Of a stretch of 64,000 nt of DNA, positions 45,430-60,222 are shown piece after piece. A program made the translations under genes and the position numbers. Every line of letters starts with the position of its first letter. Position 1 is the stretch's first letter. Below the pieces are notes generated by a model that searched no databases, had not been told where the DNA came from, and worked only from the letters and a program-made list of their open reading frames with translations. This DNA is from Paraburkholderia hospita (GTDB taxonomy: Bacteria > Pseudomonadota > Gammaproteobacteria > Burkholderiales > Burkholderiaceae): contig NZ_CP026106.1 of assembly GCF_002902965.1 (NCBI RefSeq), positions 310,001 through 374,000 on the forward strand, read 5' to 3'.

Positions 45430-45475
45430 GAGTGGTGTGTCGAATGCGGTGTCGCTTTCAAGCTGGAGGCCGGAA

Positions 45476-45889
45476 TCAGAGATCGATTTGCGGAATCGTG
45501 AACGCGCCCTTGAGCGAGCGCAACTCGGCGCGATGCAGTTCCGCAAGCCGCGCCAGCACCTTTTCTCCTGCTTTCAGCAGATGCACTTCCACCTGGCGGC
45601 GGTCGGTCTCGCTGACCTTGCGCTTGACCAGTTCCAGCGCTTCGCAGCGCGACACCAGCGCGACCACGCCGTGATGCTGCGCCTGCAGCCGCTCCGCCAG
45701 TTCGCCGATGGTGGCCCATTCGCGATCGGGATAGCCCTTGATATGCAGCAGCAACAGATATTGCAGCGGCGTAATGCCTTCGCCCTGCGCGGCCTGCTCG
45801 GAGAAGCGCTCGAAGCGCCGCATCTGATAGCGAAACTCAGAGAGCTGTTCGTAGTCCGCCTTGTTCAACGTGCGTGTAAGAACTTTCAT
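45476..45889 (-). CDS. MarR-family regulator
   Basis: A 137-residue winged-helix regulator: ITPLQYLLLLHIKGYPDREW, TIGELAERLQAQHHGVVALV, RKVSETDRRQVEVHLLKAGE. It is the first gene before the ClC transporter on the same strand. A TATCA-N5-TGATA palindrome lies 33 bases upstream of its start, probably its own operator. It likely represses itself and the transporter. Confidence 0.88.
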   Translation of the reverse strand: MKVLTRTLNKADYEQLSEFRYQMRRFERFSEQAAQGEGITPLQYLLLLHIKGYPDREWATIGELAERLQAQHHGVVALVSRCEALELVKRKVSETDRRQVEVHLLKAGEKVLARLAELHRAELRSLKGAFTIPQIDL

Positions 45890-45921
45890 GTCGATGGCCG
45901 CGCAAGGGAAAACAAAAAATC

Positions 45922-45936
45922 TATCACAAAATGATA
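45922..45936. promoter_or_regulatory. MarR operator candidate (TATCA-N5-TGATA)
   Basis: A perfect 5+5 inverted repeat in the A/T-rich promoter region of the marR-ClC unit. An ATCA-N5-TGAT match also lies upstream of the HPP gene at 47370-47382. Confidence 0.55.
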
Positions 45937-45938
45937 TA

Positions 45939-45964
45939 AATGGCGATGCCTGCGCATCGCCATT
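45939..45964 (-). terminator. Terminator-like hairpin after the HPP gene
   Basis: AATGGCGATGC and GCATCGCCATT form a perfect 11-bp stem with a CTGC loop. Read on the minus strand it is followed by a T-rich stretch (TATATCATTTTG) and lies 47 bases past the HPP gene stop, so it should end that transcript just before the marR promoter. Confidence 0.65.
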
Positions 45965-46010
45965 CGGTATCTTCAGAACCTTTGGTTCAAGCGGCGCGCG
46001 ATGGCCGCGC

Positions 46011-47186
46011 TCAGGCAGCAGGGCGCTGTTGCGCCTGAGCCTGAGCCTGCATCTGCGTCTGCCTGTACAGACCCGCGATCAGATCGGACTGCGTGATGAT
46101 GCCGACCAGCCTGTCATGCGAGTCGATCACGGGAATGTGATGGTGGCCGTCGTCGGCGAAGAGCGGCACCAGTTCGACGATCGGCGTGCTGGTCGAGACG
46201 GTGCGCACGTGCGTCGTCATGACGGTGCTGACGAGTCGCCCGCGTGTCGCGTCGCGCTTGAAGAGACGCGCCGACAGCGCTTCCATCAGACGCAGGTCTG
46301 CGCTTTTCGGCTTGTTCGCGAGATCGGCGCGCGTGACGATGCCGGCCACGTGTTGACGCTTGTCGACGACGGGCAGCGCCTTGATCGAGTGACGCTGTAA
46401 CAGGTCCGCTGCGGCGCGCAACGTGCTGTCGGGCGTGACGCTGACGACGGGCGCCGACATCACGTCGCGGCATGCCAGTTCGCTGAAGGTGCGCGCGTAG
46501 GCCTGCAACTGCGTTTCGCGAAACAGCGTTTCGAGGTCTTCAGGGTCGATGTCGAGCAGTTCGCCGCGCCGGTTCAACACGGCTTCGAGGTCGGCGCGCG
46601 TGATGCTGTTGCCCGTTGCGGGCGCTTGCGGCACGGAGGGCGCCGCGCGCGTCGCGTGCGGATAGCGGTGGCCCGTCACCGCGTGATAGACGAGCGCCGC
46701 GCCGAGCAGCGCCGCCGACTGGATCAGGATCGGCTCGAGCACGAAGCGAAAGCCGAGCGCATGAATGGCGGGTCCGCCCACCACGGCCGTCAACGCGACG
46801 GCGCCCGATGGCGGGTGCACGCAGCGCAGCGCGAACATCGCGGCGATCGCGACGCCCACCGCGAGCGCCGCCGCTGCGACAGGATCGGAGATCAGCATCG
46901 CGGAGGCCACGCCCACCGTCGCCGACACCAGATTGCCGCCGATGATCGACCACGGTTGTGCAAGCGGACTGGCGGGCACGCCGAACAGCAGCACGGCCGA
47001 CGCGCCCATCGGCGCGACCAGCAGCGGAATGTTCACGTTCGGACCGAGCAGCAGATGCATGCTGCCGCCCGTGAACGCAATGCCGATCAACGCGCCGAGC
47101 GCCGAGCGCATGCGCTCGGGCCATTTGACGTTCATCGCGGCGGGATAAAAGCGAGCCAGCCACTGGAAAAAAGGGGAACGGGTCAA
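46011..47186 (-). CDS. HPP-family membrane protein with tandem CBS domains
   Basis: A 391-residue protein. The N-terminal 170 residues are the HPP domain: about five helices with LVAPMGASAVLLFGVPASPL, QPWSIIGGNLVSA and the name-giving RCVHPPSGAVAL. A CBS pair covers about residues 235-375 (RDVMSAPVVSVTPDSTL, VSTVMTTHVRTVSTST), ending in a Gln/Ala-rich tail. HPP proteins have been linked to nitrite transport in plants and cyanobacteria, but the bacterial role is open. CBS domains suggest adenosine-ligand control. A stop at 46011 is followed by a terminator. Confidence 0.88.
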   Translation of the reverse strand: MTRSPFFQWLARFYPAAMNVKWPERMRSALGALIGIAFTGGSMHLLLGPNVNIPLLVAPMGASAVLLFGVPASPLAQPWSIIGGNLVSATVGVASAMLISDPVAAAALAVGVAIAAMFALRCVHPPSGAVALTAVVGGPAIHALGFRFVLEPILIQSAALLGAALVYHAVTGHRYPHATRAAPSVPQAPATGNSITRADLEAVLNRRGELLDIDPEDLETLFRETQLQAYARTFSELACRDVMSAPVVSVTPDSTLRAAADLLQRHSIKALPVVDKRQHVAGIVTRADLANKPKSADLRLMEALSARLFKRDATRGRLVSTVMTTHVRTVSTSTPIVELVPLFADDGHHHIPVIDSHDRLVGIITQSDLIAGLYRQTQMQAQAQAQQRPAA

Positions 47187-47534
47187 GATATTGTTCTGTT
47201 GAGGGAAACGGGCAGGCGTAAGTTAAGGGAAAAGCTGTCAGAAAGGAAACAATTTGTCGTCATGGATATATGCCAACGTGATATAAATCCCGCGTAACGC
47301 CCGCCCGGCGGACGCTTGTCGGGCCTGTAAATACAGGGAAAACCCGTACGCTGTGCATAGTTGCACTGCATCATAGCGTGATATGAAATGGGCATAGCAA
47401 GGCCGCCATGGCTGCTGGCGTCCGCGTTGGTCGCTGGCACATTGCCGCATTAACGGGCATGATCGTGCCATGTGCCTGCGTCAAGCCTTCGAGGCACATG
47501 CCCAACCCACCGAAGCACCCTGTGGAGATCAAGC
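47187..47534. promoter_or_regulatory. Divergent intergenic region between HPP and phasin genes
   Basis: A 348-base A/T-richer gap with no supported gene. TGATATAAAT at 47279-47288 and TGATATGAAAT at 47379-47389 repeat a word found at the marR operator; the latter is part of ATCA-N5-TGAT (47370-47382). The promoters for both genes should lie here. Confidence 0.45.
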
Positions 47535-47954
47535 ATGGAACCCTTTGACGCCGCCAATCCGTTCGCCGAGTTCAACAAGCTGTTCGAACAGTTCAAGCTG
47601 CCCGGATTCGACGTGCCGGCCGTGATGGAAGCGCGTCGCAAGGACGTCGAGGCCTTGATTGCCGCCAATCAGACGGCCGTGCAGGGCATCCAGGCGCTCG
47701 CGCAGAAGCAGGCCGAAATGCTGCGTTCGACGCTCGCCGAGCTGCAGGATGTCGCGCAGAAGCAGGCAGCCACCGGCGGTGTGCCGTCGGCGCAGACCGC
47801 GGAACTCGTCCAGCAGACGCTGCACAAAGCGCTCGCGGACATGCAGCAGCTCACACAAGCCGCCTATCGCACGCAGGCCGATTCGTATGCGGTGATTGCG
47901 AAGCGCGTCGAAGAGAACGTCGAAGAGCTGAAGACACTGCTGCAGAAGAAGTAG
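47535..47954 (+). CDS. Phasin family protein (PHA granule-associated)
   Basis: A 139-residue amphipathic helical protein. It begins MEPFDAANPFAEFNKLFEQF and has VMEARRKDVEALIAANQTAV, the usual phasin core, then a coiled-coil-like region of Gln/Ala/Glu to the end (VEENVEELKTLLQKK). Phasins coat polyhydroxyalkanoate granules. GGAG is 8 bases before the ATG; 21 additional upstream codons are not protein-like. Length is short of the ~190 residues of PhaP1 but fits smaller Burkholderia phasins. Confidence 0.85.
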   Translation: MEPFDAANPFAEFNKLFEQFKLPGFDVPAVMEARRKDVEALIAANQTAVQGIQALAQKQAEMLRSTLAELQDVAQKQAATGGVPSAQTAELVQQTLHKALADMQQLTQAAYRTQADSYAVIAKRVEENVEELKTLLQKK

Positions 47955-47986
47955 CGCGCGTTCGCGCAGGCTGCAACGCGAGGCTG

Positions 47987-48002
47987 GCCGCGCGTGCGCG
48001 GC
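47987..48002. terminator. Short GC hairpin between convergent genes
   Basis: GCCGCGC-GT-GCGCGGC lies between the phasin stop and the end of the metallopeptidase gene. It has no T-run; weak evidence for a bidirectional stop. Confidence 0.3.
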
Positions 48003-48012
48003 TTGTGCGTGA

Positions 48013-49077
48013 CTACTTGCGCGCCGACGCCTGCGCGATCACACGATGCACGAAACGCAGCTTGTCGACGACAGGCGGCGCCAGCGCGAATGGATAACCG
48101 TCCGGCATGCCGAGACTGCGGTTCAGGCTGTTCAGCACGTCCGTCAGTGGAAACCAGCGCTTCATCAGGTTATCGAAGCTCGCTTCCTCGACGGGCGTCT
48201 GGTCGGTCAGCGACGGCTCGTTCGGCGCGGGCGGCAGCAGCGCAAGCCCGTATGCCGTCGACGTATCTATCACCTCGACGATCATCAGATAGTGCGCCCA
48301 CGTTTCGGCCCAGTCTTCCCACGGATGCATCGTAGCGTACGCGCTGATGAATCTGTTTTCCCAGTCGGCGGGTGCGCCGTTGCGATAGTAGTTGTCCATC
48401 GCTTCGCGATAGTCGGCTTGATCGTCGCCGAAGCGCTCGCGAAACGGCTTGAGCCAGTGCGTCCCCGCAACCAGCTTTTCGAAGTAGTAATGCCCCGACT
48501 CGTGGCGGAAATGCCCCAGGAGCGTTCGATACGGCTCGCGCATGTCGGTGCGGACTTTCTCGCGGTGCGCGTCGTCGGCTTCGGCCACGTTCAGTGTGAT
48601 GCGGCCGTTGTCATGCCCCGTCATCACCGCCTCGCCGTCGCCCGTGTTTTCGCGGAAGTCGAATTCGAGGCCGTTGTCGGGATCGACCTGGCGCGATTCG
48701 ATCGCGAGGCCAAGCGAGTCGAGCGTATAGAGCAGGCGGCGCTTCGCGGTCTCCAGCCGGTACCAGTAAAGCCGGTTGTTCGGTTCCGCGAGATTCGGGA
48801 TCGTGTGCGTGAGACGGCATGAGCGGCACAGCGTTTCGGGATCGTCGGCGGGTAGCATCCAGTTGCAGATGTTCTCGACCGCGTAGTTGTGGCATTGACG
48901 GTACAGCTTGCCTTTGACGTCGGGATGCAGGCTGCGCCACTGGCCATCGCCCGCGTCTTCGAACGCACTGATTTCGGCCAGTTCGGGCACGTAGCCGAGC
49001 AACGCCTCGCAGCGCTCGCACAATACGTTTTCGAAGAACACGCGCTGGTCGCACCGGTTGCAATGGAAGGCTTTCAT
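48013..49077 (-). CDS. Zinc-binding metallopeptidase family protein (COG4307-like)
   Basis: A 354-residue soluble protein. An N-terminal zinc ribbon has C6, C9, C20 and C23, with further Cys at 84 and 87 (ETLCRSCRL). The peptidase-like part has the HExxH motif H192-E193-S-G-H196 (FRHESGHYYFE) and a later DWAETWAHYL helix near residue 267 whose Glu/His could be the third ligand. This matches the Peptidase_Mx-like family often found beside transglutaminase/ATP-grasp/alpha-E genes. It faces the large transglutaminase gene across a 370-base gap. The start at 49077 gives MKAFHCNRC; upstream sequence is not protein-like. Confidence 0.85.
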   Translation of the reverse strand: MKAFHCNRCDQRVFFENVLCERCEALLGYVPELAEISAFEDAGDGQWRSLHPDVKGKLYRQCHNYAVENICNWMLPADDPETLCRSCRLTHTIPNLAEPNNRLYWYRLETAKRRLLYTLDSLGLAIESRQVDPDNGLEFDFRENTGDGEAVMTGHDNGRITLNVAEADDAHREKVRTDMREPYRTLLGHFRHESGHYYFEKLVAGTHWLKPFRERFGDDQADYREAMDNYYRNGAPADWENRFISAYATMHPWEDWAETWAHYLMIVEVIDTSTAYGLALLPPAPNEPSLTDQTPVEEASFDNLMKRWFPLTDVLNSLNRSLGMPDGYPFALAPPVVDKLRFVHRVIAQASARK

Positions 49078-49447
49078 CGCTTCAATCCGTTTACGTTTAT
49101 GTCGTCGTGCAGTGGATGAGAGGTGTGTCAGGCGGACGTGCAGCGCGCCGTTTATAGCAGCATCCGCGCGCGTGGGGTTCCCGCAATCTTCATGCCGCTT
49201 CGCTATAACGTCGTGGGTCTTGCGCACATTACGTGCGCGAATGACCCGCCGCATGCGCCGCTTTGGTGCGTGTGGTCGGTCGCGTGGCACGCGTGCTTTG
49301 TCATTCGAAGTCCTTTGAAGCATGAGGCCGCCACGTGACAATGCGATAGCTGCAAATGCAGCAACGGCTGCGTTTTCACGCTCAACGGCATAGAGCTTGC
49401 TTTTCGCGTCTGCCCCCTTATCGGCCTTTCCCGCCCAGGAGTCCGGA
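49078..49447. other. Divergent intergenic region with a GCGCAC palindrome
   Basis: No gene is supported. GCGCAC-ATTAC-GTGCGC (49222-49238) is a possible operator or hairpin for the divergent metallopeptidase and transglutaminase genes. No near-consensus promoter was recognised. Confidence 0.4.
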
Positions 49448-52400
49448 GTGTCCATACGTGTCGCGCTGAACCATGTCACGCATTACCGCTATGACCGTCT
49501 CGTCGGATTGTCGCCGCAGGTCGTGCGGCTGCGCCCGGCGCCGCATTGCCGCACGCCGATCCTGTCGTACTCGATGCGCGTCGAGCCGGAAGTGCACTTC
49601 ATCAACTGGCAGCAGGACGCCTTCGCGAACTACCAGGCGCGGCTCGTGTTTCCCGAGCGCACGCCTGAGTTCAAGATTACGGTCGATCTCGTCGCGGAAA
49701 TGGCCGTCTACAATCCGTTCGACTTCTTCCTGGAGCCGGCCGCCGAAAAGTTTCCGTTCGAGTACGCGCCCGAGCTTGCGGCCGAATTGGCGCCGTATCT
49801 CGTCAGACGCGAGATGACGCCGCGCTTCAAGGAGTTCGTCGCGAGCATCGACCGTTCGCCGCGTGTCACAGCGGATTTCCTCGTCGAGCTGAACCAGCGT
49901 CTGCAGCACGACATCCGCTATCTGATCCGGATGGAGCCGGGCGTGCAGACGCCTGAGGAAACGCTCGTCAATGGGTCGGGCTCGTGCCGCGATTCGGGCT
50001 GGCTGCTGGTCGAGACGCTGCGCCAGCTGGGGCTGGCGGCGCGCTTCGTGTCGGGTTACCTGCTGCAGCTTGCGCCCGATACCAAGTCGCTCGATGGCCC
50101 GAGCGGCACCGAATACGATTTCACCGACCTGCACGCATGGTGCGAAGTGTTCCTGCCCGGCGCGGGCTGGATCGGCCTCGATCCGACCTCGGGCCTGCTT
50201 GCGGGCGAGGGCCATATTCCCGTCGCGTGCACGCCGGAGCCGGGCAGCGCTGCGCCGATTTCGGGCGCCGTCGACGAGTCCGAAGTCGAGTTCGAGCACG
50301 CGATGTCGATCACGCGCGTGCTCGAAACGCCGCGCGTGACCAAGCCCTATACGGAAGCCGCGTGGGACCGCGTGCTGACGATGGGCGCGCACGTCGACAG
50401 CCAGCTCGGCGCGATGGACGTGCGCCTGACGATGGGCGGCGAACCGACCTTCGTGTCGGTGCGCGACCGCGACGCCGCTGAATGGAACACCGACGCGCTC
50501 GGCCCGACCAAGCGCGGTTATGCCGTCGCGCTGATGGACAAGCTGCGCGGCCACTACGGCGCGAACGGCTTTCTGCATATCGGCCAGGGCAAGTGGTATC
50601 CGGGCGAGCAGTTGCCGCGCTGGGCGCTGTCGCTGTACTGGCGCGCGGACGGCGAGCCGTGCTGGAACGATCCGGCGCTGTTCGCCGACGAGCGCAGCCC
50701 CGGCCGCTATACATCCGACGATGCGCACCGCTTCATCACGCGGCTCGCCGGCAAGCTGTCCGTCGACAGCGAGTACGCGCAGCCTGGTTACGAGGATACG
50801 TGGTACTACCTGTGGCGCGAGCGCCGCTTGCCCGTCAACGTCGATCCGTTCGATTCGCGGCTCGACGACGAGATGGAGCGTGTGCGGCTGCGCCGCGTGT
50901 TCGAGGCGGGGCTGTCGGGCGTAACGGGTTACGTGCTGCCGCTGGCCCGCGCGACGACCGGCCCGGGTTGGACGAGCGGCGCGTGGTTCTTCCGCGACGC
51001 GCGCATGTATCTGATTCCCGGCGACTCGCCGATGGGCTTGCGCCTGCCGCTCGATTCGCTGCCGTGGGTTGCGGAGGAAGATTATCCGTACCAGCATGCG
51101 CACGATCCGTTTGCGGAACCCGCGCCGCTACGCACGTCGGCGCAATTGCGGATGCAGTATGAAGGTGTGTCGTACGACGCTCGTCGCGGTGTCGGATCAG
51201 GCGGTGGACGCGGCGCGGGCTCAAGCGGACACGGCACAGGCACGCTGCCTCAGGACCGCCTTCCCGAGCGCGGCGAATCGGCAGCATCGCTGATCCGCAC
51301 GGCACTGTGCGTCGAGGTGCGCAGTCCGGCGCGCGCGGCGGGCCCGAAAGTGGAGGCCGACGCCTTGGGCGATGGGCGTGCGCTGCTGCACGTCTTCATG
51401 CCGCCGCTCACTGAAGTCGACGACTATCTCGACCTGCTTGCCGCGATCGAAGCCACGGCCGCCGAGCTGAAGATGCCCGTCGTGATCGAAGGCTATCCGC
51501 CGCCGCGCGATCCGCGTCTGCATGTGCTGCAGGTGACACCCGATCCCGGCGTGATCGAAGTCAACATTCATCCGGCGAAGAACTGGAACGAACTCGTCGA
51601 TCACACCGAGTTCCTCTACAACGCTGCGCACGAGACGTATCTGAGCACCGAGAAGTTCATGCTCGACGGCCGCCATGCGGGCACGGGCGGCGGCAATCAC
51701 TTCGTGCTCGGCGGCGCGACGCCTGCCGACAGTCCGTTCCTGCGCCGCCCGGATCTGCTCGCAAGCCTCGTCGCTTACTGGCACAACCATCCGTCGCTGT
51801 CGTACCTGTTTTCCGGGCTGTTCATCGGGCCGACCAGCCAGGCGCCGCGTATCGACGAAGCACGTAACGATCAGGTCTACGAGCTCGAACTGGCGTTCAG
51901 CGAACTGCAACGGCAGATCGATCTGCTCGGCGGCCAGGGTAGCGCGCAACTGCCGCCGTGGATGATCGACCGCGCGCTGCGCAACATCCTGATCGACGTG
52001 ACGGGCAACACGCACCGCGCCGAGTTCTGCATCGACAAGCTCTATTCGCCTGATGGCCCGACGGGCCGCCTCGGCCTGCTCGAACTGCGCGGCTTCGAAA
52101 TGCCGCCGCACTCGCGCATGAGTCTCGTGCAGCAACTGCTGCTGCGCGCGCTGGTCGCGAAGTTCTGGAAGACGCCGTACACCACGCGCCTCACGCGCTG
52201 GGGCACCGGCTTGCACGACCGCTTCCTGCTCGGCACGTTCGTGCAGATGGATTTCGACGATGTGCTTGCCGATCTGCGCGGCGCGGGCTACGCGTTCGAC
52301 AGCGAATGGTTCGCGCCGCACTTCGCGTTCCGCTTCCCGGCCATCGGCGAGATGCACGCGAACGGCATGTCGCTGACGATCAGCGGCGCGCTGGAGCCGT

Positions 52401-52873
52401 GGCACGTGATGGGCGAAGAGGGCGCGGCGGGCGGCACGGTGCGGTATGTCGATTCGTCGGTGGAGCGGCTCGAAGTGAAGGTGCTGGGGCTGAACGACAA
52501 TCGCCATGTCGTGAGCGTCAATGGCGTGTCCCTGCCGCTGCAGCCGACGGGCCGCATCAGCGAATTCGTCGCGGGCGTGCGCTTCCGCGCATGGGAGCAA
52601 TCGTCGTCGCTGCATCCTACGATAGGCGTAGATGCGCCGCTGACGTTCGATGTCGTCGATACCTGGACGGGCCGCTCGATCGGCGGATGCCAGTATCATG
52701 TCGCTCATCCGGGCGGACGCAACTATCAGACGTTCCCGGTGAACGCGTACGAAGCGGAAAGCCGGCGACGCTCGCGCTTCTTCACGACGGGCCACACGCC
52801 GGGGCCGCTCGTGACGCAAGCGCCGCCGCGCAGCGTGGAGTTTCCGTTCACGCTAGATTTGCGGCACTGGTAA
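49448..52873 (+). CDS. Transglutaminase-like + DUF2126 fusion protein
   Basis: A 1141-residue cytoplasmic protein; no signal peptide. Residues 1-80 are the bacterial transglutaminase N-terminal domain (RVALNHVTHYRYDRLVGLSP). The core at about 150-250 has the catalytic triad C180 (NGSGSCRDSGW), H229 (TDLHAWCEVF) and D245 (GLDPTSGL). The remaining ~850 residues are DUF2126 (COG4196), e.g. MGGEPTFVSVRDRDAAEWN and HTEFLYNAAHETYLSTEKFM, a family that has been proposed to be an amide-bond ligase. The GTG start follows GGAG and removes 17 unrelated codons. It leads an apparent operon with the ATP-grasp/alpha-E gene and a second transglutaminase. Confidence 0.9.
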   Translation: MSIRVALNHVTHYRYDRLVGLSPQVVRLRPAPHCRTPILSYSMRVEPEVHFINWQQDAFANYQARLVFPERTPEFKITVDLVAEMAVYNPFDFFLEPAAEKFPFEYAPELAAELAPYLVRREMTPRFKEFVASIDRSPRVTADFLVELNQRLQHDIRYLIRMEPGVQTPEETLVNGSGSCRDSGWLLVETLRQLGLAARFVSGYLLQLAPDTKSLDGPSGTEYDFTDLHAWCEVFLPGAGWIGLDPTSGLLAGEGHIPVACTPEPGSAAPISGAVDESEVEFEHAMSITRVLETPRVTKPYTEAAWDRVLTMGAHVDSQLGAMDVRLTMGGEPTFVSVRDRDAAEWNTDALGPTKRGYAVALMDKLRGHYGANGFLHIGQGKWYPGEQLPRWALSLYWRADGEPCWNDPALFADERSPGRYTSDDAHRFITRLAGKLSVDSEYAQPGYEDTWYYLWRERRLPVNVDPFDSRLDDEMERVRLRRVFEAGLSGVTGYVLPLARATTGPGWTSGAWFFRDARMYLIPGDSPMGLRLPLDSLPWVAEEDYPYQHAHDPFAEPAPLRTSAQLRMQYEGVSYDARRGVGSGGGRGAGSSGHGTGTLPQDRLPERGESAASLIRTALCVEVRSPARAAGPKVEADALGDGRALLHVFMPPLTEVDDYLDLLAAIEATAAELKMPVVIEGYPPPRDPRLHVLQVTPDPGVIEVNIHPAKNWNELVDHTEFLYNAAHETYLSTEKFMLDGRHAGTGGGNHFVLGGATPADSPFLRRPDLLASLVAYWHNHPSLSYLFSGLFIGPTSQAPRIDEARNDQVYELELAFSELQRQIDLLGGQGSAQLPPWMIDRALRNILIDVTGNTHRAEFCIDKLYSPDGPTGRLGLLELRGFEMPPHSRMSLVQQLLLRALVAKFWKTPYTTRLTRWGTGLHDRFLLGTFVQMDFDDVLADLRGAGYAFDSEWFAPHFAFRFPAIGEMHANGMSLTISGALEPWHVMGEEGAAGGTVRYVDSSVERLEVKVLGLNDNRHVVSVNGVSLPLQPTGRISEFVAGVRFRAWEQSSSLHPTIGVDAPLTFDVVDTWTGRSIGGCQYHVAHPGGRNYQTFPVNAYEAESRRRSRFFTTGHTPGPLVTQAPPRSVEFPFTLDLRHW

Positions 52874-52921
52874 GCCGCTGCTTCAACCTTAAGCCCATAA
52901 CGACAGACTCGCGACGACATC

Positions 52922-55534
52922 TTGGCTTTTCAATCGACCTTTCCGTTCGAAGCGGCAGCAGGCCATCCCGACGCGCTGGCCCTGCTGCGCTCGCTGCCGC
53001 TGCTCGACGTGCGCGAAGGCCACTGGGACGAACTGCGCGACGAATCGGGCGCGCTGCGCGAGCCGTGGCGGCGCTTTTTCGAGTTGCTCGGCGAGGAAGG
53101 CATCGCGGGTCTGGAGCCGGGGCGCGCATCGATCGCCCAGCAGGTGCGCGACAACGACATCACGTACAACGTCTACGCGGACAAGGGTGAGCCGCGTCCG
53201 TGGTCGCTCGACCTGCTGCCGTTCATCATCGGTGAAGACGAGTGGGCGCATATCGAGCGCGGCGTGAAGCAGCGCGCGCAGCTGCTCAACGCGATCGTCG
53301 CCGATGTGTACGGTCCGCAGATGTTGCTCCAGCAAGGCAAGCTGCCCCCCGCGCTCGTCTATGGGCACCCGGGCTATCTGCGCGCCGTGAAGGGCTTCGC
53401 GCCGCCGGGCGGCCAGTTCCTGCAGGTGATCGGCGTCGATCTGGCGCGTGCGCCCAGCGGCGAGTGGACGGTCGTGTCGCATCGCACCGAAGTGCCGTCG
53501 GGCCTCGGCTACGCACTGGAAAACCGCATGATCGTGTCGAGCGTATTCGCCGACGCGTTCCGCGAATTGCGCGTGAGCCGCCTTGCGCCGACGTTCTCCA
53601 CGCTGATTGCGACGCTCGCCGAATGGGCGCGCGCGACGATGCGCAACGGCAAGACGGACAGCGCGCCGCATATCGCGCTGCTCACGCCGGGGCCGTTCGC
53701 GGAGACCTATTTCGAGCATGCGTTTCTGGCGCGCTATCTGGGCGTGACGCTCGTCGAAGGCAAGGACCTGACGGTGCGCAACGACATGCTGTATCTGAAG
53801 ACGCTCACGGGTCTGGAGCGCGTGCACGTCGTCGTGCGGCGCCTCGACGACGCGTTCTGCGACCCCGTCGAACTGCGCGCCGATTCGACGATCGGCGTGC
53901 CGGGGCTGTTGCAGGTGATGCGCGCGGGCAATGTGATCGTGTCGAACGTGCCGGGTTCGGGCTTTCTCGAATCGCCGGCGATGCATGGTTTTTTGCCGGG
54001 CATTGCGCAGACCTTGCTGAACGAGCCGCTGTTGCTGAACGGCGTGTCGACGTGGTGGTGTGGCGAGGACGCCGCGCGCGAGCATGCGTTCGCGAACATC
54101 GACGACGCCTTCCTGCAACCGACATGGCCCACGCGCACGCCGGACGGGCCGCCTGGCATCGCACCCGGCGCGCAGCGGCTCGACGCGTGGAAGAGCCGCA
54201 TCGAGCGCGCGCCTGATGCGTTCACGATCCAGCAGCCGCTGCCGTATTCGTGCACGCCGCGCTACGAAGACGGCACGCTCGGCAACCGGCCGAGCGTGCT
54301 GCGCGCCATCGCTGTCGCCGATGCGAACGGCAGCTGGCACGTGCTGCCCGGCGGCTTCACGCGGCTCGCGGGGGAGCGGCAGGCGTCGGTGTCGATGCAG
54401 TTCGGCGGCAGCAGCGTCGATACATGGGTGCTGTCGAGTCATCCGAATTCGACCTTCACGCTGTTGCCGTCGCCGCTCAAGCCCGCGGATCTCGCGCGCA
54501 AGCATCGCACCGTGTCGAGCCGCGCGGCGGAGAACCTGTTCTGGAGCGGCCGCTACGGCGAGCGCGCGGAAAACAACGTGCGGCTGCTGCGGCTGACTCT
54601 CGGCTCGCTGGAAAGCAACGGCGCGGACACCATGTTCGGGACGCTCGCGGAGCTCGCGCTGCAATATGGTCTCGTGCAAGCGGGCGACATCGTGGCGGGC
54701 CAGTCGCTGCGAGCGTTCGAGCGCACGCTGGTCGCGAATCTGCACGAAAACACGGGCGCTTATAGCATCGGCCAGAATCTCGCGAGCCAGGCGCGCGCGA
54801 GCGGCGAGATACGCGGCCGGCTTTCAAACGATCACTGGCGCATCACGCTCGCCGCGCGCAACGACTTCCGCGACGCGCTGCACGAACTGACGCCGGCGGC
54901 GGCCGTGTCGTCGAATGCGTCTTCGCGCGGCAAGGCACGCTACAACCGCGTGTCGCTGATGAACGCGCTCGAACATCTTTCGACGCAGCTCGCGGCGATC
55001 AGCGGCGCACAAGGCGACCGCATGACGCGCGACGAAGCGTGGCGCCTGATGTTCGCGGGCCGGCACATCGAGCGCGTGTGGGCGATGACGTCGATACTGC
55101 GCGTCGTCGCGATGCAGCGCCAGCTGGCAACGCCCGCCGCGTTCGATCTGCTGCTGCAACTGTTCGACAGCACGCTCACGTATCGCTCGCTGTATCCGGG
55201 GCGCCTCGAAGTGCCCGCGCTGATCGATTTGCTCGTGATCGAGCCGACCAATCCGCGCGGACTGTACGGCGTGTATGCGCGACTGTGCTCGAAGCTCGAC
55301 GATATCTCGATGGCGGCGGGCAACACGCGCCATCGGCGTTTCAACGACATGCTGCCGGACGTGAGCACGCTGCCCTCGCTGGAGCAGTTGTGCACGACGG
55401 ACGACAGCGGCATGTACGAGGAACTGATCGCGCTGTGCGACCGCCTCGCGATGAGCATGACGGCAGCGGCGAATGAAATCAGCGCGCGCTATTTCAGCCA
55501 CGCGAACACGCTGGCCCCGCAGGTGTCGTCATGA
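52922..55534 (+). CDS. Circularly permuted ATP-grasp / alpha-E fusion protein
   Basis: An 870-residue protein. Residues about 70-510 are the circularly permuted ATP-grasp type 2 domain (DNDITYNVYADKGEPRPWSL, DRIP-like DLLPFIIGEDEW, YLKTLTGLERVHVVVRRLDD, STWWCGEDAAREHAF). From about residue 530 comes the alpha-E domain (SSRAAENLFWSGRYGERAE, EAWRLMFAGRHIERVWAMTS). In many bacteria these are two genes; here they are fused. The only start candidate after an in-frame stop is TTG at 52922, with no clear ribosome site; translation may depend on the upstream gene ending 48 bases before. Predicted to make an ATP-dependent peptide-like bond. Confidence 0.88.
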   Translation: MAFQSTFPFEAAAGHPDALALLRSLPLLDVREGHWDELRDESGALREPWRRFFELLGEEGIAGLEPGRASIAQQVRDNDITYNVYADKGEPRPWSLDLLPFIIGEDEWAHIERGVKQRAQLLNAIVADVYGPQMLLQQGKLPPALVYGHPGYLRAVKGFAPPGGQFLQVIGVDLARAPSGEWTVVSHRTEVPSGLGYALENRMIVSSVFADAFRELRVSRLAPTFSTLIATLAEWARATMRNGKTDSAPHIALLTPGPFAETYFEHAFLARYLGVTLVEGKDLTVRNDMLYLKTLTGLERVHVVVRRLDDAFCDPVELRADSTIGVPGLLQVMRAGNVIVSNVPGSGFLESPAMHGFLPGIAQTLLNEPLLLNGVSTWWCGEDAAREHAFANIDDAFLQPTWPTRTPDGPPGIAPGAQRLDAWKSRIERAPDAFTIQQPLPYSCTPRYEDGTLGNRPSVLRAIAVADANGSWHVLPGGFTRLAGERQASVSMQFGGSSVDTWVLSSHPNSTFTLLPSPLKPADLARKHRTVSSRAAENLFWSGRYGERAENNVRLLRLTLGSLESNGADTMFGTLAELALQYGLVQAGDIVAGQSLRAFERTLVANLHENTGAYSIGQNLASQARASGEIRGRLSNDHWRITLAARNDFRDALHELTPAAAVSSNASSRGKARYNRVSLMNALEHLSTQLAAISGAQGDRMTRDEAWRLMFAGRHIERVWAMTSILRVVAMQRQLATPAAFDLLLQLFDSTLTYRSLYPGRLEVPALIDLLVIEPTNPRGLYGVYARLCSKLDDISMAAGNTRHRRFNDMLPDVSTLPSLEQLCTTDDSGMYEELIALCDRLAMSMTAAANEISARYFSHANTLAPQVSS

Positions 55535-56421
55535 AGGACGCGCAGACGCTGCTGTCCGTGTCGCATCGCACGACCTATCACTATTCGACGCTCGTCGAAA
55601 CCGCGCAGCATCTCGCGACGATCCGCCCGCTCGCTTGCTCGTGGCAGCGCGTGGTCGCGCATACGGAGCGCATCGAGCCGTCGCCTTCGTATCTGCATAG
55701 CCGCATCGACGCATTCGGTAATGACGTGCTGTATTTCGCGCTCGATGCGCCGCACGAACGCCTGCAAATGGTCAGCGAAACGACCGTGCAGCTCACGCCG
55801 CGCTGGCGCGATCTCGATCCCGACGCGACGCCCGAATGGGAAGAGGTGGCGGACTCGCTGCGGTTTCGCGCGGGCGGCGAGTGTCATCCGCAGGTCGAGT
55901 TCCGTTTCGCGTCGCCCAACGTTGCGCTCAAGCCATCGTTGCGCGACTACGCGCTGCGCAGCTTCCGCCCCGGCACGCCGATCGTCGCGGGCGCGATCGA
56001 TCTGATGCATCGCATTTACGCGGATTTCGACTACAAGCCGTCGGCGACGATGTTCGATACGCCCGCCGAACGTGCGTTCGATATGAAAAGCGGCGTCTGC
56101 CAGGACTTCGCGCAGGTGATGATCGGCTGCCTGCGCGCGCTCGGCCTGCCCGCGCGCTATGTGAGCGGCTATCTGCGCAACGATCCGCCGCCGGGACAGC
56201 CGCGCCTGATCGGCGCCGATGCGTCGCATGCGTGGGTGTCGGTGCATTGCCCGCAAAGCGGCTGGATCGACCTCGACCCGACCAACGACGTGCTCGCCGA
56301 CATGGACCACGTGACGCTCGCGATCGGCCGCGATTACAGCGACGTTTCGCTGCTGCGCGGCATGATTCTTGGCGGCGGCGCGCATCGCGTCGAGGTGGCC
56401 GTCAGCGTGTTGGCGCTGTGA
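55531..56421 (+). CDS. Transglutaminase-like cysteine protein
   Basis: A 296-residue member of the bacterial transglutaminase-like family (COG1305). The N-terminal domain begins LLSVSHRTTYHYSTLVETAQ. The catalytic triad is C190 (KSGVCQDFAQVMIG), H233 (DASHAWVSVH) and D249 (GWIDLDPTND). The usual role in this family is a cysteine protease, amidase or transamidase. It overlaps the ATP-grasp/alpha-E gene by 4 bases, so they are cotranslated. Its gene ends 38 bases before the promoter of marR1. Confidence 0.92.
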   Translation: MKDAQTLLSVSHRTTYHYSTLVETAQHLATIRPLACSWQRVVAHTERIEPSPSYLHSRIDAFGNDVLYFALDAPHERLQMVSETTVQLTPRWRDLDPDATPEWEEVADSLRFRAGGECHPQVEFRFASPNVALKPSLRDYALRSFRPGTPIVAGAIDLMHRIYADFDYKPSATMFDTPAERAFDMKSGVCQDFAQVMIGCLRALGLPARYVSGYLRNDPPPGQPRLIGADASHAWVSVHCPQSGWIDLDPTNDVLADMDHVTLAIGRDYSDVSLLRGMILGGGAHRVEVAVSVLAL

Positions 56422-56458
56422 GCAACAATGAATTTCATCCGGCGTATCACAACGCGAT

Positions 56459-56487
56459 TTGACAGCGTGCATACGCACATATAGACT
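56459..56487 (+). promoter_or_regulatory. marR1 promoter with operator in the spacer
   Basis: TTGACA (56459-56464) and TAGACT (56482-56487) are 17 bases apart. Between them lies the palindrome GTGCATACGCAC (56467-56478). A start near 56494 would leave almost no leader before the ATG at 56496, which fits the lack of a ribosome site. Confidence 0.6.
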
Positions 56488-56495
56488 TCCTTCTC

Positions 56496-56918
56496 ATGAG
56501 CAAGCCCATTTCTCACGACGATTGCAACTGTTTCGCGCTGCGCCAGGCGGCGCGGTTCGTCACGCAGATCTACGAACGCCATCTCGGCCAGGTTGGCCTG
56601 ACGGCGGCGCAGTTCACGATCGTCGCGAAGCTCGCCCGCAAGCCCGGCCTGACCATGGTCGAGCTGGCCGACACGATGGTGATGGAACGCACCACGCTCG
56701 TGCGCGCGCTGAAGCCGTTGCAGCGCGATGGCCTCGTGCTCAGCGAGCCGTCCGAGCACGATGGCCGCACCTATCAGTTCAGCCTGTCGAAAGCGGGCAA
56801 GGAAACGTTCGAGCAGGCCGCCATCGCGTGGCGCGCCGCGCAGGACGAATTCGAAAGCAAGTTCGGTCGCAGCCGCGCCAAGGCATTGCGCGCCGAGCTG
56901 TTCAATCTGACTTCGTAA
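56496..56918 (+). CDS. MarR-family regulator 1 of the efflux operon
   Basis: A 140-residue MarR protein: CFALRQAARFVTQIYERHLG, QFTIVAKLARKPGLTMVELA, MVMERTTLVRALKPLQRDGL. It is about half identical by eye to the next gene, notably the shared DCF/CFAxRQAAR and DTMVMERTTLVRA blocks. The ATG has no good ribosome site and lies 17 bases past an operator-like palindrome. It probably represses this operon and releases it when a hydrophobic drug or phenolic acid binds. Confidence 0.88.
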   Translation: MSKPISHDDCNCFALRQAARFVTQIYERHLGQVGLTAAQFTIVAKLARKPGLTMVELADTMVMERTTLVRALKPLQRDGLVLSEPSEHDGRTYQFSLSKAGKETFEQAAIAWRAAQDEFESKFGRSRAKALRAELFNLTS

Positions 56919-56974
56919 TCCGGTTGTTCTTTTAGCGCGTTGTATCGCGCGCTCGACGAAATCGATTCAATGGT

Positions 56975-56986
56975 GTGCATATGCAC
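56975..56986. promoter_or_regulatory. Operator-like palindrome over marR2 start
   Basis: GTGCATATGCAC is a perfect 12-bp palindrome that contains both candidate start codons of marR2 (GTG 56975 and ATG 56981). Binding here could block both transcription and start-site access. Confidence 0.6.
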
Positions 56987-57424
56987 GTAGAAACTGACAC
57001 TGAAGAAATACAGGTTTCGCCCAACGACGATTGCTTTGCGATCCGCCAGGCGGCGCGCTATGTGACGCAGCTATACGACCGTCATCTCGGTCAGGTGGGG
57101 CTGAAAACCACGCAGTTTTCGATTATGTGCCGGCTGCGCCGCCGCAAGTGGATGACGATGAAGGAGCTCGCCGACTCGATGGTGATGGAACGTACTACGC
57201 TGGTCCGCGCGATCCAGCCGCTGCAGCGCGACGGGCTCCTGTTCACGGAAGCGTCGCGCAGCAATCGCCGCGTGTTGACGGTGATGCTGACGACAGCTGG
57301 CGAAGAACGGTTGCAGGCGGCGCGCGACCACTGGTTCGCGGCGCAGGAAGAATTCGAGCAGCGTTTCGGACCGCAGCGTGCAGCGAGTCTGCGCGAAGAA
57401 TTGTTCGACATGACCCGGCGCTAA
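56975..57424 (+). CDS. MarR-family regulator 2 of the efflux operon
   Basis: A 149-residue (GTG start) or 147-residue (ATG at 56981) MarR paralogue of the preceding gene: CFAIRQAARYVTQLYDRHLG, TMKELADSMVMERTTLVRAI, RRVLTVMLTTAGEERLQAAR. The start lies inside the 12-bp palindrome and has no ribosome site, so the true start is uncertain by two codons. A terminator-like hairpin follows. The two MarR proteins might homo- or heterodimerise and respond to different ligands. Confidence 0.87.
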   Translation: MHMHVETDTEEIQVSPNDDCFAIRQAARYVTQLYDRHLGQVGLKTTQFSIMCRLRRRKWMTMKELADSMVMERTTLVRAIQPLQRDGLLFTEASRSNRRVLTVMLTTAGEERLQAARDHWFAAQEEFEQRFGPQRAASLREELFDMTRR

Positions 57425-57444
57425 CACTCACGTTTTCAGGCAAT

Positions 57445-57472
57445 AAAGCGGGCGCTTCCAGGCGCTTTTTTT
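57445..57472 (+). terminator. Terminator-like hairpin before emrA
   Basis: AAAGCG (57445-57450) pairs with CGCTTT (57463-57468) over an internal GC-rich loop and runs into a stretch of T. It may end the marR transcript before the emrA operator and so give emrAB its own promoter. Confidence 0.5.
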
Positions 57473-57484
57473 CAACGATTCCCA

Positions 57485-57496
57485 GTGCATACGCAC
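57485..57496 (+). promoter_or_regulatory. Operator-like palindrome before emrA
   Basis: GTGCATACGCAC, identical in 12 of 12 bases to the marR1 copy and followed by the same CATA/ATA extension, ends 8 bases before the emrA ATG. Repressor binding here would cover the emrA start region. Confidence 0.6.
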
Positions 57497-57504
57497 ATAG
57501 AGCC

Positions 57505-58620
57505 ATGTCTACAACTCCTTCTATTGCTCCGCCGAGCGTCGTCGGCGCCGCGAAACAGACGCGCAGCATTCCGTGGATGCTGCTGGCGGTGCTCACCGTC
57601 GTCGTCGTTGTTGCGGCGGCCGCATCGTACTGGTTCTTCGTGGCCCGCTTTGTCGAAACCACTGACGATGCCTACGTTGGCGGTGACGTCACCGTGCTTG
57701 CGCCGAAGGTGAACGGCTTCGTCAACGACGTGCTGGTACAGGACAACCAGTATGTGAAAGCGGGGCAGGTACTGATCCGCCTCGACGCGCGCGATTACGA
57801 TGCGCGCCTCGCGCAGGCCAATGCCGAAGTCGCGAGCGCGGAAGCGGCTGTGACGGAGCTCGAAGCGAAGAAGTCGCTACAACTCGCGACGATCAACGAG
57901 CAATCCGCCGAAGTGCGTGCATCGGGTGCGGAACTCACGCGCAGCGCGTCGGACTCGGTGCGTTACCGCCAACTCGTGAAGGACGATGCGGTATCGAACC
58001 AGGTCGTCGAGCGCGCGGATGCGGACCTCGCGAAAGCGCACGCTGCCGTGGATCGCAGCAGCGCCGCGTTGACGGCGGCGCAGCGTCAGTTGCCCGTGCT
58101 CGATGCGCAGATCAACGACGCGCATGCCCGCATCGCGACGGCCGTGGCGGCGCAACGTGTCGCCGCGCTCAACGTCGAGTACACGACGATCCGTTCTCCC
58201 ATCGACGGCTATGTCGGCAATCGCACGGCGCGCGTGGGTGTGCTGGCCAATGTCGGCGTGTCGCTGCTGACGGTGGTGCCCGCTAGCGGACTGTGGATCG
58301 ACGCGAACTTCAAGGAAGACCAGCTGAAGAAGATGAAGGTCGGCGACACCGTCGATGTCGATCTGGATGCGTCGAGCCATCCCATCGAAGGCGTGGTCGA
58401 GAGCCTTGCGCCGGCGACGGGCGCGACCTTCAGCGTGCTGCCCGCGGAGAACGCGACAGGCAACTTCACGAAGATCGTGCAGCGCGTCCCGGTACGTGTG
58501 CGGCTGTCGGTGCCGAAGGAGATGCAAGGCGTGCTGCGCCCCGGCCTCTCGGCAACGGTGAAGGTGCATCTGCGCTCCGACGCAGACGCGAGCCACGACG
58601 CAGCCCGCTCGGCTTCGTAA
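57505..58620 (+). CDS. emrA: Efflux pump membrane-fusion protein (EmrA/HlyD family)
   Basis: A 371-residue periplasmic adaptor. One N-terminal membrane helix (residues about 25-47: MLLAVLTVVVVVAAAASYWF) leads to the biotinyl-lipoyl domain (ETTDDAYVGGDVTVLAPKVN), a coiled-coil hairpin and the beta-barrel (YTTIRSPIDGYVGNRTARVG, LWIDANFKEDQLKKMKVGDT). It links the inner-membrane EmrB pump to the outer-membrane channel. The ATG at 57505 was chosen from the family N-terminus; the frame opens further upstream over marR2. It lacks a strong ribosome site. emrB follows after 21 bases. Confidence 0.92.
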   Translation: MSTTPSIAPPSVVGAAKQTRSIPWMLLAVLTVVVVVAAAASYWFFVARFVETTDDAYVGGDVTVLAPKVNGFVNDVLVQDNQYVKAGQVLIRLDARDYDARLAQANAEVASAEAAVTELEAKKSLQLATINEQSAEVRASGAELTRSASDSVRYRQLVKDDAVSNQVVERADADLAKAHAAVDRSSAALTAAQRQLPVLDAQINDAHARIATAVAAQRVAALNVEYTTIRSPIDGYVGNRTARVGVLANVGVSLLTVVPASGLWIDANFKEDQLKKMKVGDTVDVDLDASSHPIEGVVESLAPATGATFSVLPAENATGNFTKIVQRVPVRVRLSVPKEMQGVLRPGLSATVKVHLRSDADASHDAARSAS

Positions 58621-58641
58621 CCCACGGACGCCGCGACCATC

Positions 58642-60222
58642 ATGAGCAAGACGACATCCGCACCCGCAAACCCGGCCGATCTGCCGACCGCAACCAAAGT
58701 CTTCGCGTTCTCGCTGCTGTGCCTGGGCTTCTTCATGGCGACGCTCGACATCCAGATCGTGGCGTCGTCGCTGAAGGATATCGGCGGCGGCCTGTCGGCG
58801 AGCCAGGATGAACTCTCCTGGGTGCAGACCGCGTATCTGATCGCCGAAATCATGGTGATTCCGATGTCCGGCTGGCTCACGCGCGTGTTTTCGACGCGCT
58901 GGGTGTTCGCGGCCTCCGCGTTGGGCTTCACCATCACGAGCATGCTGTGCGGGCTCGCATGGGACATCAACTCGATGATCCTGTTCCGCGGCCTGCAAGG
59001 CGCAGCGGGCGCCGCGATGATCCCCACCGTGTTCACGACCGCCTTCATGCTGTTTCCGGGCAAGCAGCGGATCATCGCCGCGACGACGATCGGCGCGCTC
59101 GCATCGCTTGCGCCGACGATCGGCCCCGTGATTGGCGGGTGGATCACCGATCAATGGTCGTGGCACTGGCTGTTCTATCTGAACCTCGTGCCGGGCGTGC
59201 TCGTCACGGTGCTCGTGCCGCGCTATGTCAACGTCGATCACGCCGATATCTCGCTGCTAAAGACGGGTGACTATCTGGGCATCGTGCTGATGTCGGGCTT
59301 TCTCGGCTGCCTCGAATATGTGCTCGAAGAAGGGCCGCGCAAGAACTGGTTCGGCGACAACGCGATTCTGTTCTGCGCGTGGATCTGCGCGATCTGCGGC
59401 TTCCTGTTTCTCGTGCATGCGTTCACGGCGAAAGAGCCGATCGTCGATCTGAGGGCGCTCGCAATTCGCAACTTCGGTATCGGCAGCCTGTTGTCGTTCA
59501 TCACGGGCATCGGCCTGTTCTGCACGGTGTTCCTGACACCCGTGTTTCTGTCCCGTGTGCGTGGTTTTGATTCGCTGCAGATCGGTCTCGCGCTGCTGTC
59601 GGTCGGTTGCGCGCAACTGGTCGCGCTGACGGCCTACTCGTTTCTCGCACGCAGGGTCGACATGCGGCTGCTGATGGTGTTCGGCCTGATCTGCTTTGGT
59701 GTTGGCTGCTACCTGTATGTGCCGCTGACGAACCAGTGGGGCTGGCACGAACTGCTGATTCCGCAGGTGCTGCGCGGCGTCGGCCAGCAGTTCTGCGTGC
59801 CGCCCATCGTGACGATGGCGCTCGGTTCGCTGCCGCCTTCGCGGCTCAAGTCGGCGAGCGGCCTGTTCAATCTGATGCGTAACCTGGGCGGCGCGATCGG
59901 CATTGCGGTGTGCAGCACGATGCTCAACGACCGCCTGAACCTGCATTACGAACGGCTCGACGAACACGTGACGGCTGGCCGCCCGGTGATCGAAGCGATG
60001 CTGCGCAATCAGGCCGCGCATTTCTCGGCGGTCGGTGGCGACGTGATCAACGGCGCGTCGGCGGGTCTCGCATCGCTGCATTCGCTGCTGATGCGCGAAG
60101 CGCTCGTGCTGACGTTCTCCGACACGTTCCTCGCGGTCTCGCTGTGCTTCGCAGTGGGCCTGATCAGCGTGCTGTTCTCGCGGCCTTTCGGTCTTACCGC
60201 GCCGCCGCCGGACGCACACTGA
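58642..60222 (+). CDS. emrB: Efflux pump inner-membrane transporter (EmrB/DHA2 MFS)
   Basis: A 526-residue major facilitator with about 14 membrane helices, driven by proton antiport. Motif A-like GWLTRVFSTRWVF and motif C GALASLAPTIGPVIGGWIT are visible, with FMATLDIQIVASSLKDIGGG at the N-terminus as in DHA2 proteins. It exports hydrophobic drugs, phenolics or aromatic acids with EmrA and the NodT-type channel. The outer-membrane gene starts 55 bases later. Confidence 0.92.
   Translation: MSKTTSAPANPADLPTATKVFAFSLLCLGFFMATLDIQIVASSLKDIGGGLSASQDELSWVQTAYLIAEIMVIPMSGWLTRVFSTRWVFAASALGFTITSMLCGLAWDINSMILFRGLQGAAGAAMIPTVFTTAFMLFPGKQRIIAATTIGALASLAPTIGPVIGGWITDQWSWHWLFYLNLVPGVLVTVLVPRYVNVDHADISLLKTGDYLGIVLMSGFLGCLEYVLEEGPRKNWFGDNAILFCAWICAICGFLFLVHAFTAKEPIVDLRALAIRNFGIGSLLSFITGIGLFCTVFLTPVFLSRVRGFDSLQIGLALLSVGCAQLVALTAYSFLARRVDMRLLMVFGLICFGVGCYLYVPLTNQWGWHELLIPQVLRGVGQQFCVPPIVTMALGSLPPSRLKSASGLFNLMRNLGGAIGIAVCSTMLNDRLNLHYERLDEHVTAGRPVIEAMLRNQAAHFSAVGGDVINGASAGLASLHSLLMREALVLTFSDTFLAVSLCFAVGLISVLFSRPFGLTAPPPDAH

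What the first reader, a model, noticed from the sequence alone, without database searches (positions are those of the whole stretch)
48013..56421. Transglutaminase / DUF2126 / ATP-grasp / alpha-E / metallopeptidase system
Seen: a 1141-aa transglutaminase-DUF2126 protein, an ATP-grasp/alpha-E fusion and a second transglutaminase, nearly overlapping, with a divergent HExxH zinc peptidase. All catalytic residues are intact (C180/H229/D245; C190/H233/D249; H192/E193/H196). Known: these families co-occur across bacteria and have been proposed to form amide or peptide bonds, but product and target are undescribed. Inference: a ligase pair builds or attaches a peptide, transamidases move or trim it, and the peptidase processes it. 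No peptide-precursor gene is visible, so the acceptor may be a cellular protein or small metabolite.
Basis: partly seen in the sequence, partly recalled or inferred. Interest (0 to 1): 0.75.

Follow-up and report, generated by a model that had tools for sequence, protein, structure and literature searches.

The report
Nitrogen-starvation amide-ligase and peptidase cluster
A four-gene cluster thought to make or cut amide bonds carries what look like switches of the nitrogen-starvation response, and one of its two presumed bond-making enzymes has lost key residues of its active site; the kind of cluster was already known, but its product is not.

Summary
In 200 sampled genomes of the phylum, DUF2126 comes with alpha-E and with a stand-alone-type ATP-grasp in 63 of 63. 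This kind of system is in print as a predicted peptide-synthesis or tagging system. Added here: (1) divergent sigma-54 promoter-like sites lie in the peptidase/DUF2126 gap in 28 of 30 genus loci (the window's own included), an NtrC-like site in 29 of 30; the genome's second, Anbu-type operon has a sigma-54-like site in 30 of 30. Published RNA-seq shows NtrC dependence of the Burkholderia cluster and nitrogen-limitation induction of the Pseudomonas Anbu operon (there also in an rpoN mutant). (2) None of 223 fused ATP-grasp sequences keeps both E and N of its probable metal motif; 60 of 60 stand-alone copies do. The 'ligase pair' of this operon is therefore probably one ligase plus a pseudo-ligase. 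(3) Intact ATP-grasp, alpha-E, transglutaminase and Anbu lie 19 kb beyond the window.

The parts
48013..49077 (-). Zinc ribbon + Peptidase_Mx metallopeptidase (COG4307 type), 354 aa from ATG; HESGH at residues 192-196
49183..49197 (-). sigma-54 (-24/-12) promoter-like site CGGCATGAAGATTGC, about 106 nt upstream of the peptidase ATG
   Evidence: conserved in 28 of 30 genus loci, the window's own included
49255..49269 (+). NtrC-like inverted repeat GCGCCGCTTTGGTGC, one mismatch to GCACYN4TGGTGC (consensus recalled); not rare in the window by itself
   Evidence: 29 of 30 genus loci; 4 window matches, 3.58 expected
49386..49400 (+). sigma-54 (-24/-12) promoter-like site CGGCATAGAGCTTGC, 62 nt upstream of the DUF2126 gene start
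   Evidence: conserved in 29 of 30 genus loci, the window's own included
49448..52873 (+). Transglutaminase-like domain (C180/H229/D245) + DUF2126 putative amidoligase, 1141 aa, GTG start
52922..55534 (+). Circularly permuted ATP-grasp (E-x-N motif lost) fused to Alpha-E, 870 aa
55531..56421 (+). Second transglutaminase-like protein (C190/H233/D249), 296 aa

Best explanation
A cytosolic amide-bond-making and -breaking system switched on by NtrC and sigma-54 in nitrogen starvation. Shown here: gene order, promoter-like sites and their conservation, linkage, triads, and loss of the ATP-grasp E-x-N motif in the fusion. Inferred: DUF2126 (called GS-like in print) is the ATP-dependent ligase of this operon; the fused ATP-grasp/alpha-E is a retained pseudo-ligase that holds the acceptor or pairs with the intact ATP-grasp of the Anbu operon; the transglutaminase-fold domains transfer or hydrolyse the amide; the zinc peptidase, and Anbu from the second operon, trim the product. 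Together they would attach and strip an amino-acid or peptide unit on a cellular protein or amine so that nitrogen can be recycled.
For: Divergent sigma-54-like sites in 28 of 30 genus loci (window's own included), NtrC-like site in 29 of 30. Anbu operon sigma-54-like site in 30 of 30. Among 80 named loci (L234 dropped for lack of upstream sequence) the site stands upstream of DUF2126 when it leads its run of system genes (54 of 70) but not when it follows another system gene (1 of 9); other leading genes 30 of 403. In print: the B. cenocepacia H111 cluster I35_5080-83 changes by log2 -6.0 to -9.4 in an ntrC mutant (PMC5491218, passages), and its order and domain names match the DUF2126 locus of another strain; P. 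putida PP_2686-2688 induced on N limitation (PMC7801951, passages). DUF2126 with alpha-E 63 of 63 and with stand-alone-type ATP-grasp 63 of 63. None of 223 fused copies keeps both E and N, 60 of 60 stand-alone copies do, while residues aligned to window R202, E265, D282, D314 and N342 are fixed in all 223.
Against: My profile comparisons of DUF2126 with GCS2 are not significant. No substrate is known. In P. putida the rise is also seen in an rpoN mutant, and the proteasome-like gene PP_2685 rises only 1.1- to 4.8-fold (PMC7801951). Tests of the related Anbu operon found no peptidase activity and no stable complex (PMC6376114, passages). Some genomes keep the fusion without DUF2126 (L156, L171) or show DUF2126 without the fusion in the fetched stretch (L152, L166, L168). 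16 of 70 leading loci show no sigma-54-like site; of 18 fetched stretches from other classes of the phylum that had a scored system gene, 6 show one. The peptidase is within 10 kb of DUF2126 in only 8 of 19 genomes holding both.
Confidence: 0.4

Rival explanations
1. Small-molecule pathway: DUF2126 and the intact ATP-grasp join amino acids or amines into a soluble gamma-glutamyl-type or polyamine conjugate used to take up, detoxify or store nitrogen; transglutaminases and peptidases process that metabolite, not proteins.
For: PMC2588565 (passages and section 6) argues for metabolite or peptide synthesis rather than protein tagging because no Pup-like ORF is nearby. The stand-alone ATP-grasp motif resembles that of glutathionylspermidine synthetase (weak) and 3n6x is named after it. 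Marine co-occurrence of these domains with urea-metabolism domains (PMC3597751, passages).
Against: Two peptidase families and several transglutaminase-fold domains per genome are more than a simple conjugate needs (inference). Apart from comEC no unlabelled neighbour family spans more than 6 genus labels, so no common transporter or catabolic gene stood out.
Confidence: 0.3
2. Starvation proteolysis: the transglutaminase-fold and zinc peptidase act as proteases, Anbu degrades, and the ligase domains only mark or cap peptides; the aim is protein turnover for nitrogen.
For: Sigma-54-like site before the Anbu operon too; PMC5666114 and PMC7801951 (passages) suggest protein turnover or proteolysis.
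Against: Anbu tested inactive on standard proteasome substrates (PMC6376114). Proteolysis needs no ligase, yet DUF2126 is well conserved.
Confidence: 0.2
3. The fused ATP-grasp is an active ligase with a rearranged metal site, so the reader's ligase pair stands.
For: Residues aligned to window R202, E265, D282, D314 and N342 are fixed in 223 of 223, so the domain is under constraint and not decaying; K384 is kept in 61 of 103 locus rows.
Against: N is lost in 223 of 223, E in 222 of 223, the lysine aligned to K337 in 222 of 223; the substituting residues at E and K337 vary.
Confidence: 0.2

Closest known systems
Predicted peptide-synthesis/tagging system with ATP-grasp, GS-like ligase, NTN peptidase and alpha-E (Iyer et al. 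2009; paper not held here, content recalled and as quoted in PMC6376114 and PMC5666114)
   Same: Same families: circularly permuted ATP-grasp, alpha-E, transglutaminase, and (19 kb beyond the window) Anbu; DUF2126 as second ligase (recalled).
   Different: Anbu sits in a separate operon; a zinc peptidase stands next to DUF2126; the ATP-grasp copy here lacks the E-x-N motif; sigma-54/NtrC-like sites.
Anbu operon (ATP-grasp, alpha-E, transglutaminase, Anbu)
   Same: Related ATP-grasp, alpha-E and transglutaminase; a sigma-54-like site before both operons.
   Different: Window operon has DUF2126 and a metallopeptidase instead of Anbu; its ATP-grasp and alpha-E are fused and diverged (32% identity to the stand-alone ATP-grasp).
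Rv2566-type transglutaminase + carboxylate-amine ligase proteins (PMC2588565, passages and section 6)
   Same: Same described architecture: N-terminal transglutaminase-like domain and C-terminal putative ligase.
   Different: Rv2566 itself was not compared here; GS-fold kinship not reproduced by my profiles.
B. cenocepacia H111 I35_5080-83 NtrC-regulated transglutaminase cluster (PMC5491218, passages)
   Same: Gene order ATP-grasp, alpha-E, transglutaminase, transglutaminase-DUF2126 found in another B. cenocepacia strain.
   Different: There the genes run in one direction, followed by the fusion and a transglutaminase, and no peptidase was detected in the 23-kb stretch; here they are split into two loci.

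Membership tests
Predicted ATP-grasp / GS-like / alpha-E / peptidase system | Circularly permuted ATP-grasp and alpha-E | tested here: met
   linkage
Predicted ATP-grasp / GS-like / alpha-E / peptidase system | NTN-fold peptidase (Anbu) in the system | tested here: met
   Not in the window operon; in the same genome 19 kb beyond the window. Within 10 kb of DUF2126 in 15 of 35 genomes that hold both; 28 of 63 DUF2126 genomes show no Anbu match
Predicted ATP-grasp / GS-like / alpha-E / peptidase system | ATP-grasp with its usual metal-motif residues | tested here: not met
   Fused copy: none of 223 keeps both E and N. The genome's stand-alone copy keeps them, as do all 60 compared
GS/GCS2-fold amidoligase (DUF2126 domain) | Profile similarity to GCS2 | tested here: inconclusive
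   hhalign not above shuffles (13 to 46 of 60 shuffles reach it; 38 of 60 with a cleaned GCS2 set); best local matches fall on the GCS2 HVHIG and E-L-S segments. Pfam calls it putative amidoligase
GS/GCS2-fold amidoligase (DUF2126 domain) | Fold | not testable with these tools
   structure prediction busy, then switched off
Bacterial transglutaminase-like cysteine enzymes | Cys-His-Asp triad | tested here: met
   32 of 32 and 20 of 20 rows
Zincin metallopeptidase | HExxH plus downstream acidic ligand | tested here: met
   HExxH 12 of 12; E254 and E258 invariant as candidate third ligand. Activity not tested
NtrC/sigma-54 regulon | -24/-12 site and NtrC-like site at an operon-leading position, conserved | tested here: met
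NtrC/sigma-54 regulon | NtrC-dependent transcription in this organism | not testable with these tools
   only relatives in print (PMC5491218, PMC7801951, PMC3325844)
Pupylation | Small Pup-like protein encoded nearby | tested here: inconclusive
   among unlabelled ORFs of 70 aa or more the commonest neighbour family is comEC (11 labels, 17 loci), all others 6 labels or fewer; smaller ORFs not tested

The most novel reading that the evidence does not exclude
The fused ATP-grasp/alpha-E is a maintained pseudo-ligase that works as adaptor or regulatory subunit between two ligases (DUF2126 and the intact stand-alone ATP-grasp), making a two-operon, NtrC-driven, reversible amide-tagging cycle of nitrogen starvation with interchangeable erasers (Anbu and the COG4307 zinc peptidase).
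Probability: 0.2. Interest if true: 0.85.

Novelty: new member of a known kind. Interest (0 to 1): 0.5.

Why it matters
DUF2126 was found in 63 of 200 sampled genomes of its phylum, yet no paper I saw gives the system a product (searches; open-licence library only). Tying it to NtrC names the growth condition in which to look, and the lost ATP-grasp motif says which proteins to assay first (DUF2126 and the stand-alone ATP-grasp, not the fusion). Both turn an old prediction into a direct experiment.

Tried and rejected
Structure prediction of the DUF2126 protein: not obtained. DUF2126 against GCS2 by hhalign with narrow and broad GCS2 sets, with doubled sequences for circular permutation, and on residues 670-925: not significant. 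In some searches five of the 49 GCS2 rows came from loci cut by a contig end or with a shorter flank; four of them were wrong short pieces and one may be misread. One search repeated the comparison without the five: still not significant (38 of 60 shuffles reach the score). PDB search with the DUF2126 profile gave transglutaminases first and otherwise matches of E 0.6 or worse; a single-sequence hit to hREV7 (E 3e-4) was gone with the profile and is taken as chance. Rfam found nothing in 44000-60000. The frequent 825-aa neighbour (17 loci, three looked up) is ComEC: local synteny, not a partner. The NtrC-like pattern with up to one mismatch is not enriched in the window as a whole (4 found, 3.58 expected); it counts only through its conserved place. 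The efflux genes downstream were not taken as part of the system, since apart from comEC no unlabelled neighbour family spans more than 6 labels. Papers: Iyer et al. 2009 not held. Metal-ligand numbers of glutathionylspermidine synthetase are recalled; a search for them gave nothing useful; only the invariance of R, D, E and N columns in 12 GSP_synth sequences was seen (a text pattern for the motif matched 10 of the 12).

Full report
Observation. All four genes stand at the given coordinates with the stated domains. The peptidase's own start is taken as the ATG at 49077 (354 aa), and DUF2126 starts at GTG 49448 (1141 aa); DUF2126 and fusion are 48 nt apart, fusion and second transglutaminase overlap by 4 nt.

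Genome context. The window is G000:C2:310001-374000 of an 11.5-Mb genome. DUF2126 homologues up to 98% identical lie in genomes of the same genus; the nearest database protein in the list is named Paraburkholderia azotifigens, 95%. About 19 kb beyond the window end lies a second locus: stand-alone ATP-grasp, alpha-E, transglutaminase and Anbu. The last was confirmed by its match to solved Anbu chains (E 3e-87). The two operons are about 26 kb apart (33 kb from DUF2126 to Anbu).

Linkage. In one set of 200 genomes of the phylum: DUF2126 in 63, alpha-E in 112, Anbu in 69, peptidase in 29. DUF2126 genomes with alpha-E: 63 of 63; with a stand-alone-type ATP-grasp match at E below 1e-200: 63 of 63 (read by eye from the table). 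Anbu with alpha-E 68 of 69, peptidase with alpha-E 28 of 29. The peptidase lies within 10 kb of DUF2126 in 8 of 19 genomes holding both, and within 10 kb of Anbu in 2 of 22; Anbu lies within 10 kb of DUF2126 in 15 of 35; 28 of 63 DUF2126 genomes show no Anbu match. These genomes are related to one another, so the Fisher values overstate the case. The peptidase lies in the same run of genes in two Achromobacter and two Marinobacter loci. The core also occurs in an acidobacterium (its large protein aligns to the window's over residues 1-1139 at 44.5%). A Bacteroidota plasmid carries a divergent gene annotated as zinc metallopeptidase (in two pieces) beside stand-alone ATP-grasp, alpha-E and transglutaminase. 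Exceptions: L156 and L171 have the fusion without DUF2126; L152, L166 and L168 have DUF2126 without the fusion in the stretch fetched.

Promoters. A scan for TGGCACN5TTGC with fixed GG and GC and up to two mismatches found, in the gap between peptidase and DUF2126, one site on each strand, each pointing at its gene. They are the only exact matches to YGGCATN5TTGC in the 64-kb window (a pattern made after seeing the sites). In 30 genus loci (the 30 best matches, from 58 genomes of which 52 had a match; the window's own locus is one of the 30) the forward site is present in 29, the reverse in 28, both in 28; 3.0% of 86-nt stretches of local DNA hold a forward hit. The blocks are conserved while most of the DNA around them is not (alignment). 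An NtrC-like site with up to two mismatches is present in 29 of 30 (background 0.31 per 500 nt). The one locus without sites at these places (L089) has an ATP-grasp match upstream of DUF2126 in that genome. The Anbu operon has a sigma-54-like site at about -82 in 30 of 30 genus loci, the own one included, with NtrC-like repeats of one to three mismatches upstream. Beyond the genus, among 80 named loci (L234 left out): 54 of 70 when DUF2126 leads, 1 of 9 when it follows a system gene, 30 of 403 for other leading genes; 25 of 35 genus or group labels among the leaders have a hit (Fisher 8e-35 and 2e-4, relatedness not corrected; six of these loci are named Paraburkholderia or Caballeronia). The leader class comes from my ORF caller; some leaders without a site, such as L181 and L182, have ATP-grasp and alpha-E genes beyond the peptidase. 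In the 35 stretches outside the window's genus: 16 of 54 system leading genes against 10 of 157 others. Of 18 stretches from other classes with a scored system gene, 6 show a site (counted).

Expression in print. PMC5491218 (passages): in B. cenocepacia H111 the genes I35_5080 (DUF404/407), 5081 (DUF403), 5082 and 5083 (large transglutaminase protein) change by log2 -8.2, -9.4, -9.4 and -6.0 in an ntrC mutant under nitrogen limitation, and I35_5080-83 is named among common sigma-54 and NtrC targets. Another B. cenocepacia strain shows the order ATP-grasp, alpha-E, transglutaminase, DUF2126, fusion, transglutaminase, so I read I35_5083 as DUF2126; that is an inference by order and name. PMC7801951 (passages): PP_2686-2688 rise 11- to 37-fold on nitrogen limitation in three strains, among them an rpoN mutant, while PP_2685, the proteasome-like gene, rises 1.1- to 4.8-fold; the authors assign the operon to NtrB/NtrC. 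The rise in the rpoN mutant does not fit simple sigma-54 dependence in P. putida. PMC3325844 (passage) lists PP2685-2687 as raised 6.6- to 11.1-fold under nitrogen limitation. These P. putida genes are the Anbu operon, not DUF2126.

The fused ATP-grasp. Against 24 stand-alone copies, 31 fused ones differ at residues that never or hardly vary there (the two-sequence BLAST aligns the LEDN motif stretch without a gap). In a wider set, all 60 stand-alone copies read E and N in LEDNLRxPSG; of 223 fused copies (103 from loci, 120 database proteins that are the best-listed of 7982) none keeps N and one keeps E. The aligned lysine K337 is kept in one of 223. A length filter dropped 1 of 103 fused candidates, and 6 of 65 ATP-grasp-only candidates were left out as short or closer to the fused type. 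Fused and stand-alone copies separate cleanly on a long branch (0.84; 106 fused and 64 stand-alone tips, none mixed, the 120 database proteins left out), so this is probably one old event, not 223. One stand-alone copy each of Bacteroidota, Actinomycetota and Deinococcota keeps the motif; fused copies of an acidobacterium and of Sinorhizobium lack it. A weak profile match (0.6% probability) lays this motif on the R-x-D ... E-x-N-x-D segment of glutathionylspermidine synthetase, whose R, D, E and N columns are invariant in 12 GSP_synth sequences and are, as I recall, its metal and phosphate ligands. Residues aligned to window R202, E265, D282, D314 and N342 stay fixed in all fused rows, so the domain is maintained. 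The Y. bercovieri Anbu-operon ATP-grasp releases phosphate from ATP (PMC6376114, passages).

DUF2126. PMC2588565 (passages and section 6) places Rv2566-type proteins in the carboxylate-amine ligase superfamily. My own profile tests against GCS2 do not reach significance, although best local matches fall on the HVHIG and E-L-S segments of GCS2 and on invariant DUF2126 residues (H751; E704, N706). I treat the GS kinship as reported, not shown.

Conclusion. The kind of system is known; the window holds a member. What is added is a strong sign of control by nitrogen starvation, with the divergent peptidase in the same regulatory gap, and good reason to doubt one of the two ligases. Product and acceptor stay open.

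Noticed in passing
window 50651-50746 (-): ARAGORN calls a tRNA-Tyr (ata) inside the DUF2126 gene, on the other strand; probably a false call.
   Followed up: no
window 57031-61732 (+): EmrA/EmrB/NodT-like efflux genes downstream of the operon; no such family stood out beside the 80 named loci.
   Followed up: partly
window 46011-47186 (-) and 47472-47954 (+): HPP transmembrane + CBS domains, and a phasin-like gene, next to the peptidase.
   Followed up: no
L171 and L170 (G255); G227: Genomes of the genus that keep the fused ATP-grasp/alpha-E and a transglutaminase but gave no DUF2126 match beyond transglutaminase-like hits; in G255 the peptidase is kept too.
   Followed up: partly
L172 (G221): A second DUF2126 locus, 68% identical to the window's, with its own stand-alone ATP-grasp, alpha-E and transglutaminase; G254 has a similar copy, 70%.
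   Followed up: no
L169 (G212), L324 (Caballeronia sp. SL2Y3): In part of the group a stand-alone ATP-grasp lies just beyond the peptidase, so that ATP-grasp and DUF2126 share one locus.
   Followed up: partly
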